Source: Dehalococcoidia bacterium
Lineage (GTDB): Bacteria; Chloroflexota; Dehalococcoidia; CAUJGQ01
Length of the DNA stretch: 64,000 nt
Direction of reading: 5' to 3'
Assembly (NCBI GenBank): GCA_035310145.1
Contig: DATGEL010000043.1
Coordinates: forward strand, 1 to 64,000
Positions 51,497-54,584 of the stretch are shown here, piece by piece; the stretch's first letter is position 1, and every line of letters begins with the position of its first letter. Under the pieces are notes generated by a model. It was given only the letters and a program-made list of their open reading frames with translations. It ran no database searches and had not been told where the DNA came from. The position numbers and the translations under genes are program-made.

Positions 51497-52549
51497 GTGA
51501 CGCAAGGCGAGGCGCCGGCCGTGCTGTCGATCGGCGAGCTGACGGAGCTGATCTACGCGGCGGGCTGGACGGACGGGCTGCCCGTGGTGCCGCCGGCGCG
51601 GGCGCTGGTCGATCGCTTCGTCGCGGCCAGCGGCCGGGCGGCGGACGAGCTGGTGCTGATCGTGCCGCCGCTGGGCGGGCGCGGCACCGTGGAGAAGATC
51701 GCCGCCAACGCCGTGATGGCCGGCTGCTTGCCCGAGCACATGCCCGCCGTACTGGCGGCGCTGGAGGCGATGCAGGACGACCGCTTCAACCTGCGCGGCA
51801 TGCAGTGCTCGACGCACCTGAGCACGCCGCTGCTGATCTTCCACGGCCCCATCCGCCGCGAGCTTGGCATCAACTGCGGGGCGAACGCCTTCGGCCAGGG
51901 CTGGCGGGCGAACGCCACGATCGGCCGCGCCGTGAAGCTGGCGCTGGTCAACCTCGGCGGCGCCGTGCCCGGCGATGCCGACAAGGCGACCTTCGGCCAT
52001 CCCGGCAAGTACACGTACTGCATCGGCGAGAACGAGGAAGAAAGCCCCTGGGAGCCACTGCACGTCGAGCGCGGCTTTGCGGCGGATCAGAGCGCCGTCA
52101 CCGTCTACGGCGCCGAAGCGCCGCACAATATCAACAACCAGACGGCGGACAACCCGCATGACCTGCTGCGCACGATCGCCTCGATGATGGCTAACCTCGG
52201 CTCAAACCACCCCTACCTGATGAGCGAGAGCATGGTCGTGCTCTCGCCGGAGCACGCGCGCGTCTGCGCGGAAGCAGGCTGGCGCAAGCGCGACGTACGC
52301 GACTTCCTCTTCGACACGGCCCGTGTGCGCCTGGGCGACCTGAAGCGGGGCGGCCTGCACGGCGCCCGCACGCAGATGAACCCGTGGCCGCGCTGGCTCG
52401 ACCAGGCGAACGACGAGACGCGCGTGCCCGTCGCCCGCCGCCCCGACGACCTGATCGTGATCGTCGCCGGCGGCCCCGGCCGGCATTCGCTCTACATTCC
52501 CGGCTGGGGCACCCGCTCCGTGACGCGAGGGGCAGGAAACAGGAAATAG
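51497..52549 (+). CDS. Hypothetical protein paired with the UGSC selenoprotein
   Basis: 350 residues, no standard enzyme family recognised. Conserved-looking segments: AAGWTDGLPVVPPARALVDR near the start, a Cys-containing MAGCLPEHMPAVLAALEAMQ, a second in GMQCSTHLSTPLLIFHGP, GINCGANAFGQGWRAN, and GKYTYCIGENEEESPWEPLH. Soluble, no signal peptide. The GTG start has GGAGG upstream. It lies directly before the selenoprotein gene on the same strand, and proteins with a WTDGLPVVPP motif are expected next to or fused with that family. The last residues (Gly-Asn-Arg-Lys) come from a repeat. Confidence 0.8.
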   Translation: MTQGEAPAVLSIGELTELIYAAGWTDGLPVVPPARALVDRFVAASGRAADELVLIVPPLGGRGTVEKIAANAVMAGCLPEHMPAVLAALEAMQDDRFNLRGMQCSTHLSTPLLIFHGPIRRELGINCGANAFGQGWRANATIGRAVKLALVNLGGAVPGDADKATFGHPGKYTYCIGENEEESPWEPLHVERGFAADQSAVTVYGAEAPHNINNQTADNPHDLLRTIASMMANLGSNHPYLMSESMVVLSPEHARVCAEAGWRKRDVRDFLFDTARVRLGDLKRGGLHGARTQMNPWPRWLDQANDETRVPVARRPDDLIVIVAGGPGRHSLYIPGWGTRSVTRGAGNRK

Positions 52550-52573: not shown

Positions 52574-53194
52574 GTGCAGCCTGAACTCAACAAAACCCTC
52601 CCACAGCTTCCCCCTCTCCAGTTTCTGGAGAGGGGGCCAGGGGGTGAGGCCGCCGAGCGCCTGCTGGCGCTCGGCCTGGTGGACCCGACCGACCGGCCGA
52701 AGCCGCGTGAGCACCGCGCGGCACCGCGGCTGAGCACACTCAACGGCAAGCGCGCCGGCTTCTTGGACAACCACAAGGCGAACGCCGACGTGCTGCTGGA
52801 AGAGGTGCGGGCGCTCTTGGCCGAGCGTTTCGATCTATCCGGCGAGAGCTGGGTACACAAGTTCATCTACTCGCGCGAGGCCACACCCGCCGAGATCGAG
52901 CACCTGACCGAGCGCTGCGACTTCGTCGTCACCGCCGTGGGCGATTGAGGCTCCTGCGTGTCGTGCAGTATGCACGACGTGGTGGAACTGGAAGACCGCG
53001 GCGTGCCCGCGGTGGCGCTGCACACGCACACCTTCATGAACTCGGCCGTCACCCACGCCCGCGCCTATGGCCGCCCCGATCTGCGCTCGCTCTCCGTGCC
53101 CGCGCCGATCGCCAACGCCGGCCGTGAAGCCGTGCGCCACAAGGCTGAGGGCGTGCTCGATGCGATCGTGGCCGCGCTCACCGGAACGGCGTAG
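52574..53194 (+). CDS. UGSC-family selenoprotein, in-frame TGA read as selenocysteine
   Basis: Read through the TGA at 52946-52948, one frame of about 206 residues results: DPTDRPKPREHR, GKRAGFLDNHKANADVLLEE, then FVVTAVGD-U-GSCVSCSMHD and ELEDRGVPAVALHTHTF to a normal end. The sequence U-G-S-C is the motif that defines the UGSC (seleno)protein family, in which U may be Sec or Cys. Homology-like sequence continues on both sides of the TGA in the same frame, and a SECIS-like hairpin follows. The GTG at 52574 (AGGG upstream) is a tentative start; Sec would be residue 125. Residues 13-21 or so are encoded by a palindromic repeat. Confidence 0.85.
52610..52636. repeat. Perfect palindromic repeat inside the selenoprotein N-terminus
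   Basis: CCCCCTCTCCAG (52610-52621) pairs perfectly with CTGGAGAGGGGG (52625-52636) around TTT. It is translated as Pro-Pro-Leu-Gln-Phe-Leu-Glu-Arg. Its GGGGG/CCCCC ends and the neighbouring CCAGGGGGTGAGG are like the intergenic elements at 57221 and 57401. Confidence 0.85.
52946..52981 (+). promoter_or_regulatory. Bacterial SECIS element after the UGA codon
   Basis: After TGA and eight unpaired bases, CGTGTCGTGC (52957-52966) pairs with GCACGACGTG (52972-52981) in a ten-base-pair stem with two G-U pairs. The loop is AGTAT. The loop begins 18 bases after the UGA and has G as its second base, as known bacterial SECIS elements require (loop 16-37 bases away, G in the first two positions). Confidence 0.75.
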
Positions 53195-53471: not shown

Positions 53472-54584
53472 TCAGTCCGCGGCGCCGGCGGCCACGGGCG
53501 GCGCGGGCTCAAGGTCCTTGAACTGCGGCAGCACTTCCTCAGCCAGGAGCCGCATCGACTTGAACCACGGCTCGGGGTGGTCGGCGTAGTCGAAGACGAA
53601 GAGCAGCAGCGTGCCGAAGCCGCCCAGGTCCTTGTACATCTGCTCCAGCTTCTCCGACACGGTCTTCACCGAGCCCACGAGCCAGCCGTGGTTCCAGAGA
53701 TACTCCGGTGTCACCTGCGCGTCGGGGAGGTTCGGGTCGTCCTTCAGGTACTTGATGAAGTCGAAGTCCTGGAAGAGCGGCAGCAGGTACTCGCGCATCA
53801 TGCGGCCCATGTCGCCGTGCACGCACTGCTCGTAGGCCTGCTCGTCGGTGTCGGCGACGAAGATCTCGCGCACGATGCGCCACTCGCGCCGGTCGGGCAC
53901 GCGGCCGGTGCGCTTGCCGCCCTCCACCACGGAATCCCAGTGCGAGGCGACGTAGCCGGGGCTGAGGTTGAGGCTGAGTGGGATGAAGCCGCGCTCGCCC
54001 GCCAGCTTGAGCGTGTCCGAGCCGGGGCTGAAGCCGGCGACGCCGATCGGCGGGTGCGGCTTCTGGTACGGCTTGATGTGGTGCTTCAGCGTGCGCAGCA
54101 TCGGCTCCGGCACGTTCACGTGCCAGAACTGGCCCTCGTAGTCCAGCCCGCCGTCCGTCTCCCACATCTTGAGCATGATGTCGAGCGCTTCGCGGGTCAT
54201 GTCGCGGTTCTTGCCGCCGGCGCCGTCCACGGCAAAGAGCTGCCAATCGCTGGGCAGGCCGCTGGCGCCGACGCCGAGCATGTAGCGGCCGCGCGCCAGG
54301 TGATCCATGAAGGCGACGCGGCAGGCCAGCTCGGCCGGGTGGTGGTAGGGCAGGAGATGAGCGCCGGGCGCGAGCTTGATCTGCTTCGTCTGCAGCAGCG
54401 CCTGGGCGATCAGCACGTCGGGCGAGGGGTTCGGCTCCCAGGGCGAGGTGAAGTGCTCGCCGATCCAGGCCTCGTTGTAGCCCAGCTCGTCCGCGGTGCG
54501 CAGCACGCGCAGGTCGTACTCCTGGCCTTCTTTGAAGTCGCGTTCCGGCGGGTGCGAGGGCATCAGGAACATGCCGAGCTTCAT
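53472..54584 (-). CDS. LLM-class flavin-dependent oxidoreductase
   Basis: 370 residues of the bacterial-luciferase TIM-barrel family: MKLGMFLMPSHPPERDF at the start, YNEAWIGEHFTSPWEPNPSP, QIKLAPGAHLLPYHHPAELA with the conserved His pair, GRYMLGVGASGLPSDW and KPYQKPHPPIGVAGFSPGSD. It uses FMNH2 or F420H2 to oxidise an unknown substrate. It is the upstream-like paralogue of the 60855 protein (similar HxxP and KPHP segments). The start is the ATG at 54584 with a short AGAACTCC stretch upstream. Confidence 0.9.
   Translation of the reverse strand: MKLGMFLMPSHPPERDFKEGQEYDLRVLRTADELGYNEAWIGEHFTSPWEPNPSPDVLIAQALLQTKQIKLAPGAHLLPYHHPAELACRVAFMDHLARGRYMLGVGASGLPSDWQLFAVDGAGGKNRDMTREALDIMLKMWETDGGLDYEGQFWHVNVPEPMLRTLKHHIKPYQKPHPPIGVAGFSPGSDTLKLAGERGFIPLSLNLSPGYVASHWDSVVEGGKRTGRVPDRREWRIVREIFVADTDEQAYEQCVHGDMGRMMREYLLPLFQDFDFIKYLKDDPNLPDAQVTPEYLWNHGWLVGSVKTVSEKLEQMYKDLGGFGTLLLFVFDYADHPEPWFKSMRLLAEEVLPQFKDLEPAPPVAAGAAD

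What the first reader, a model, noticed from the sequence alone, without database searches (positions are those of the whole stretch)
52574..53194. UGSC-family selenoprotein hidden as two ORFs
Two plus-strand frames, before and after a TGA at 52946-52948, are in the same register. Protein-like sequence runs across the TGA as GD-U-GSC-VSC. The motif U-G-S-C is the hallmark of a family known to contain selenocysteine. A ten-pair hairpin with loop AGTAT begins eight bases after the TGA, and the loop starts 18 bases away with G in the second position, as bacterial SECIS elements require. An automatic gene caller would end the gene at TGA and lose the redox centre. The function of the family is unknown; the U-x-x-C arrangement suggests a thiol/selenol redox role.
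Basis: partly seen in the sequence, partly recalled or inferred. Interest (0 to 1): 0.88.

Follow-up and report, generated by a model that had tools for sequence, protein, structure and literature searches.

The report
UGSC selenoprotein with conserved partner enzyme
The broken-looking gene really encodes a selenium-containing protein that works with the gene just upstream, and one relative of this bacterium carries at least 170 such genes, more than twice the largest total number of selenoprotein genes reported so far for any bacterium.

Summary
An in-frame TGA (52946-52948) lies inside a UGSC-family selenoprotein (PF24696, 165.5 bits; NF041046, 135.8 against a cut-off of 125). A SECIS hairpin follows, and its stem covaries across 96 related Sec sites. 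The genome has selA, selB, selD and tRNA-Sec, and four diverged UGSC copies, each with exactly one in-frame TGA.

(1) The gene is half of a module. The upstream gene (51497-52549), in no Pfam or NCBIfam family, has homologues within 200 nt of UGSC genes in 78 of 80 loci outside this class and 21 of 26 loci of related genomes, and is often fused to it. (2) The predicted fold is Rossmann/flavodoxin-like, not thioredoxin-like as published. Profile comparison links it to the selenol domain of glycine reductase GrdB (P = 1e-8). With thioredoxin-like and thioredoxin-reductase genes nearby, this favours a selenol enzyme acting on small molecules. (3) A same-class genome (G027) holds at least 170 distinct UGSC genes with an in-frame TGA, mostly fused to or beside the partner and arrayed with SBP_bac_5 binding proteins. 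The largest published bacterial selenoproteome is 63.

Membership is near certain. The GrdB-like mechanism is inferred; the substrate is unknown.

The parts
51497..52549 (+). Partner gene ('WTDGLP' protein, 350 aa), no Pfam or NCBIfam family; immediately upstream of the UGSC gene
   Evidence: Homologues within 200 nt, same strand, of UGSC genes in 78/80 loci outside this class and 21/26 loci of related genomes; fused in one frame in L035, L116, L118 and 92 of 142 G027 copies; AF2 pLDDT 89.8
52574..53194 (+). UGSC-family selenoprotein gene, Sec at residue 125 (start uncertain: TTG 52568, GTG 52574 or GTG 52679)
   Evidence: PF24696 165.5 bits, NF041046 135.8 bits, cut-off 125
52946..52948 (+). 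TGA codon read as selenocysteine
   Evidence: Aligned with U/C of the family motif; the genome's three other copies have TGA at the same column
52946..52957 (+). U-G-S-C active-site motif
   Evidence: Sec/Cys, G and second Cys invariant in the 59-row alignment A2
52957..52981 (+). SECIS hairpin, conserved core stem 52962-52966/52972-52976, loop AGTAT 52967-52971
   Evidence: core pairs 89-98% paired with up to 25 compensatory cells in 96 sequences
52610..52636 (.). Perfect 12-bp inverted repeat near or before the true start

Best explanation
The locus encodes two proteins that act together: the upstream partner (51497-52549) and a UGSC-family selenoprotein made by reading TGA 52946 as selenocysteine through a SECIS hairpin. 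Shown by sequence: family membership, SECIS, Sec machinery, near-obligatory pairing with the partner. Inferred: UGSC is a short relative of the catalytic domain of GrdB (glycine/sarcosine/betaine reductase protein B). Its selenolate, at a helix N-terminus after strand 3, attacks a carbon of a small imported substrate held at the interface with the partner; the U-x-x-C pair is then re-reduced by a thioredoxin-like protein. Multiplied copies with their own binding proteins would serve different substrates, as substrate-specific protein B subunits do in glycine-reductase organisms.
For: Family. Sec machinery: selA 519.6 bits, selB 325.2, selD 365.5 with its own TGA, tRNA-Sec 74.4 bits with anticodon TCA. 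Four copies, the others 31-38% identical to the window copy, each with one TGA. SECIS covariation. GrdB link: hhalign probability 95.6, P = 1.2e-8, against GrdB C-terminal domains, aligning U, GIP and HPxG; unrelated neighbour families all below 2%; a GrdB of the same phylum carries a literal UGSC motif. Partner. Redox coupling: in this genome a partner copy carries an N-terminal CPTC redoxin-like domain (AhpC-TSA E = 2.7e-5, just under the gathering score), and a thioredoxin-reductase-like gene lies beside another UGSC copy. Substrate import: an SBP_bac_5 gene on the same strand within 2.5 kb of 105 of 142 G027 copies and in 19 of the 80 other loci; SBP_bac_5 and permease near this genome's C110 copy. 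Precedent: GrdB-like FarB proposed to cleave C-F in monofluoroacetate (PMC10838667).
Against: The partner is not related to GrdE, the pyruvoyl subunit (hhalign probability 0.26), and UGSC lacks the PF07355 region of GrdB, so the chemistry may differ. The GrdB similarity is remote, weaker against PrdB-like proteins (77.6), and no solved GrdB relative was found to check the fold. The window copy has no SBP_bac_5 or thioredoxin gene beside it. One of the four copies in this genome (C110) has no partner next to it. No substrate or activity is known.
Confidence: 0.6

Rival explanations
1. UGSC is a general thiol/selenol oxidoreductase (thioredoxin-like antioxidant or repair enzyme), as suggested in the literature, with no specific carbon substrate.
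For: The U-x-x-C motif is typical of Trx-fold selenoproteins; PMC2398784 states a likely Trx-like fold.
Against: AF2 gives an alternating alpha/beta order with Sec after strand 3 (pLDDT 89.9), and no thioredoxin appears among the 50 PDB fold matches listed. Near-obligatory pairing with a partner, catabolic neighbours and expansion with binding proteins do not fit a housekeeping role.
Confidence: 0.15
2. UGSC uses its selenolate as a non-redox nucleophile (transferase, hydrolase or lyase) with the partner as the substrate-activating subunit.
For: The partner has no detectable relation to any redox family; its weak fold matches are hydratases and cyclic amide hydrolases (TM at most 0.31). Neighbours include dehydratases and amidohydrolases.
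Against: The second Cys of U-G-S-C is invariant; a Trx-like fusion and TrxR neighbours point to reduction cycles.
Confidence: 0.22
3. The TGA is a real stop or an assembly error; the gene is a decayed Cys homologue.
For: Only that one codon separates it from a Cys form, and Cys forms exist in Actinomycetota.
Against: Four diverged copies each with one TGA; every match listed in the class scan has one in-frame TGA; SECIS covariation; full Sec machinery.
Confidence: 0.02

Closest known systems
UGSC-containing protein family (PF24696, NF041046; Zhang and Gladyshev, PMC2398784)
   Same: Family score, UGSC motif, SECIS; known since metagenome surveys; 33 genes in 26 organisms among more than 5,200 bacterial genomes in 2016 (PMC5029168)
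   Different: The partner gene, the GrdB relation and the mass expansion with binding proteins were not found in the passages read from the papers that name the family. The 2008 paper mentions a fusion to a domain 'Unknown_1', which may be this partner but could not be checked.
GrdB (glycine/sarcosine/betaine reductase protein B) and PrdB
   Same: Homologous C-terminal domain around U-G-[ST]-C; paired with a second subunit; paralogues with different substrates
   Different: UGSC is about half the length, lacks the PF07355 region, and its partner is unrelated to GrdE
FarB/FarE, GrdB-like monofluoroacetate dehalogenase of Cloacibacillus (PMC10838667)
   Same: Precedent for GrdB-type selenoproteins proposed to attack a bond other than C-N (C-F), with a subunit partner and a transporter in the operon
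   Different: Full-length GrdB and GrdE homologues; anaerobic respiration

Membership tests
UGSC family | Score above curated cut-offs | tested here: met
   PF24696 165.5 bits (cut-off 25), NF041046 135.8 (cut-off 125)
UGSC family | U-G-S-C at the redox site with Sec encoded by TGA | tested here: met
UGSC family | SECIS downstream of the TGA | tested here: met
UGSC family | Host has selA, selB, selC, selD | tested here: met
   tRNA-Sec anticodon TCA
UGSC family | Selenium actually incorporated | not testable with these tools
   needs 75Se labelling or mass spectrometry
GrdB / PrdB | Homologous selenol domain | tested here: met
   hhalign probability 95.6 against GrdB, 77.6 against PrdB-like proteins
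GrdB / PrdB | PF07355 region | tested here: not met
   no PF07355 match in the protein
GrdB / PrdB | GrdE/PrdA-type pyruvoyl subunit as partner | tested here: not met
   partner against GrdE probability 0.26; PrdA itself not compared
Thioredoxin-fold oxidoreductases | Thioredoxin fold | tested here: not met
   AF2 topology and fold search; a prediction, not a solved structure

The most novel reading that the evidence does not exclude
UGSC plus partner is a new class of two-subunit (often fused) selenoenzyme that processes imported small molecules by GrdB-like chemistry. It has diversified in some members of this class into binding-protein/selenoenzyme arrays of 170 or more loci in one genome, the largest selenoproteome known.
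Probability: 0.5. Interest if true: 0.9.

Novelty: new variant of a known kind. Interest (0 to 1): 0.75.

Why it matters
UGSC proteins are among the commonest selenoproteins in aquatic metagenomes, yet their function is unknown. A conserved partner, a link to GrdB chemistry and a binding-protein context turn 'unknown function' into specific tests: co-purification, ligand screening of the binding proteins, and gene removal in Cys-form Actinomycetota. If correct, selenium chemistry on imported organic matter is far more extensive than thought, and the published upper bound for a bacterial selenoproteome (63 genes, PMC13188914) is exceeded by one family in one genome.

Tried and rejected
PDB sequence searches with UGSC, the partner and GrdB gave no relative. 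The partner's fold matches (fumarate hydratase, cyclic amide hydrolases) have TM at most 0.31 and are not used as evidence of function. An alignment of a fused protein with separate rows (A3) placed the UGSC rows under the partner and was discarded. The strict pattern D-U-G-S-C finds only 24 sites in G027 because most copies read U-G-[AGT]-C or lack the Asp, so it is not used for counting. A search of G027 for tRNA-Sec gave only a tRNA-Ser as best hit; selB is present there, so the gap is put down to the incomplete assembly, which is an assumption. General recoding of TGA in G027 was rejected: 1 of 143 partner domains has an internal TGA, and TGA ends many genes. The tree gives no clear order of Sec and Cys states (10 changes at fewest on the drawn tree, one not ruled out). 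Laying the whole genome in the Python box was not available.

Full report
OBSERVATION. The read-through ORF, the TGA at 52946-52948 and the U-G-S-C motif are as described. The hairpin is real: stem 52957-52967/52971-52981, loop AGTAT at 52967-52971, MFE -18.3 kcal/mol, z -1.97. Alone it is only mildly unusual (14 of 200 shuffles fold as well). The start codon is open: a perfect 12-bp inverted repeat (52610-52636) lies in the first third of the pre-TGA frame, and family similarity begins only near residue 35, so GTG 52679 is a good alternative start.

IS IT A SELENOPROTEIN? The read-through product matches PF24696 (165.5 bits) and NF041046 (135.8, cut-off 125) across the TGA. The host genome (G000, 5.32 Mb) has selB (325.2 bits), tRNA-Sec (74.4 bits, anticodon TCA), selA (519.6) and selD (365.5, itself with one in-frame TGA). 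It carries four UGSC genes; the other three are 31-38% identical to the window copy, and each of the four has exactly one TGA, at the same column. In 393 genomes of the class, 130 have the family and every listed match carries one in-frame TGA. Outside the class, 80 loci, nearly all Actinomycetota, have Cys here; that scan used a Cys pattern, so it could not have found Sec forms elsewhere.

SECIS. In 96 Sec sites from this genome and its relatives, the core pairs (positions 16-20 with 26-30 from the T of TGA) are 89-98% paired, with 25, 12, 11, 6 and 1 compensatory cells. Over the eight pairs tested, 80% of cells pair, against at most 69% in 1,000 shuffles and at most 47% in slid registers. 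In 137 G027 sites, 103 have a stem of five or more pairs at this place, against 71 of 685 control windows from the same genes.

THE PARTNER. The gene just upstream (51497-52549) has no Pfam or NCBIfam family; none of 56 homologues has a credible match. Homologues lie within 200 nt on the same strand of UGSC in 78 of 80 loci outside the class, 21 of 26 loci of related genomes and 3 of 4 copies in this genome. They are fused to UGSC in some genomes. Conserved residues include D26-G27-L28-P29, C77, T106, R144, E178 and W185. Its predicted structure is confident (pLDDT 89.8, pTM 0.90) but matches nothing convincingly (TM at most 0.31).

FOLD AND DISTANT KIN. AF2 predicts UGSC at pLDDT 89.9 as alternating strands and helices, with Sec125 between strand 117-123 and helix 126-141. 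This is Rossmann/flavodoxin-like; the PDB hits are remote (TM at most 0.46) and none of the 50 listed is a thioredoxin. Published accounts suggest a Trx-like fold; the model disagrees. Profile comparison with GrdB C-terminal domains gives probability 95.6, P = 1.2e-8, aligning U-G-x-C, the G-I-P segment and H-P-x-G; PrdB-like proteins 77.6; sixteen unrelated neighbour families at most 1.8 (the remaining cluster is the partner family, which contains fused UGSC, and is ignored). Partner against GrdE: 0.26. So UGSC is kin to the selenol domain of GrdB but is not a GrdB, and the partner is not a GrdE.

CONTEXT. In the 80 other loci the commonest neighbours are IclR regulators (37 loci), zinc alcohol dehydrogenases (32), ABC ATPases (26), short-chain dehydrogenases (25), SBP_bac_5 (19), aldehyde dehydrogenases (18) and amidohydrolases (15); gene calls there were made by a simple script. 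In this genome, one partner copy carries an N-terminal redoxin-like domain with CPTC, a thioredoxin-reductase-like gene lies by another UGSC copy, and a third copy sits by amidohydrolases, a LigB-type dioxygenase and an SBP_bac_5 transporter. This is a catabolic setting with a reductant supply, hence the proposed mechanism.

EXPANSION. In genome G027 (same class, 5.0 Mb, 96% complete, 7% contamination) the union of two searches and 849 kb of fetched sequence gives 175 distinct UGSC domains, 170 with an in-frame TGA. For the fetched domains the TGA was seen at the motif itself in 137 of 142; the 33 not fetched rest on the search's stop count. The nearest paralogue has median identity 69% and only 2 of 140 exceed 80%, so strain duplicates do not explain the count; single contigs hold 25 (C99) and 23 (C9). 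Of 142 fetched domains, 136 have a partner within 400 nt and 92 of those are fused; 105 have a same-strand SBP_bac_5 gene within 2.5 kb. TGA is a normal stop there: 20 of 112 binding-protein genes end with it, and 1 of 143 partner domains has one inside. selB is present; tRNA-Sec was not found in this assembly. Genome G028 (2.7 Mb, 95% complete, 1% contamination, tRNA-Sec present) has 46 copies. The largest bacterial selenoproteome in the held literature is 63 genes (PMC13188914).

TAXONOMY. That the class is Dehalococcoidia (Chloroflexota) is my inference from genome sizes in the class, not a result.

JUDGEMENT. UGSC selenoprotein: about 0.97. Two-protein enzyme with the partner: about 0.85. 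GrdB-like selenol chemistry on an imported small molecule: about 0.6. Substrate: unknown.

Noticed in passing
G027 (loci L159-L198, L203-L242): At least 170 UGSC genes with in-frame TGA, many in tandem arrays with SBP_bac_5 genes, e.g. contig C9 57-90 kb and 112-155 kb.
   Followed up: partly
L137, minus strand around 1501-1917 (G000:C39): A further predicted Sec protein of the GrdB/PrdB-like kind in the same genome (LTPTUPFCTHT).
   Followed up: partly
L134, L156, L158 (G103:C216): Three grdB-like selenoprotein genes on one 11.6-kb contig, one with a literal UGSC motif.
   Followed up: no
L177, minus strand 1629-2192: A G027 UGSC copy with two TGA codons in the motif (U-G-T-U).
   Followed up: no
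L081 and L092 (Microbacterium lacus SDZm4, Microbacterium sp. BR1): Closely similar Cys-form UGSC genes without the partner gene nearby, the only two such loci of 80.
   Followed up: no
L023 (G000:C119): selD of this genome is itself a selenoprotein gene (SCGGUASKV).
   Followed up: no
window 53472-54584, minus strand: Luciferase-like (LLM class) monooxygenase gene running towards the UGSC gene; another lies downstream of the C93 UGSC copy (L248:10040-11137).
   Followed up: no
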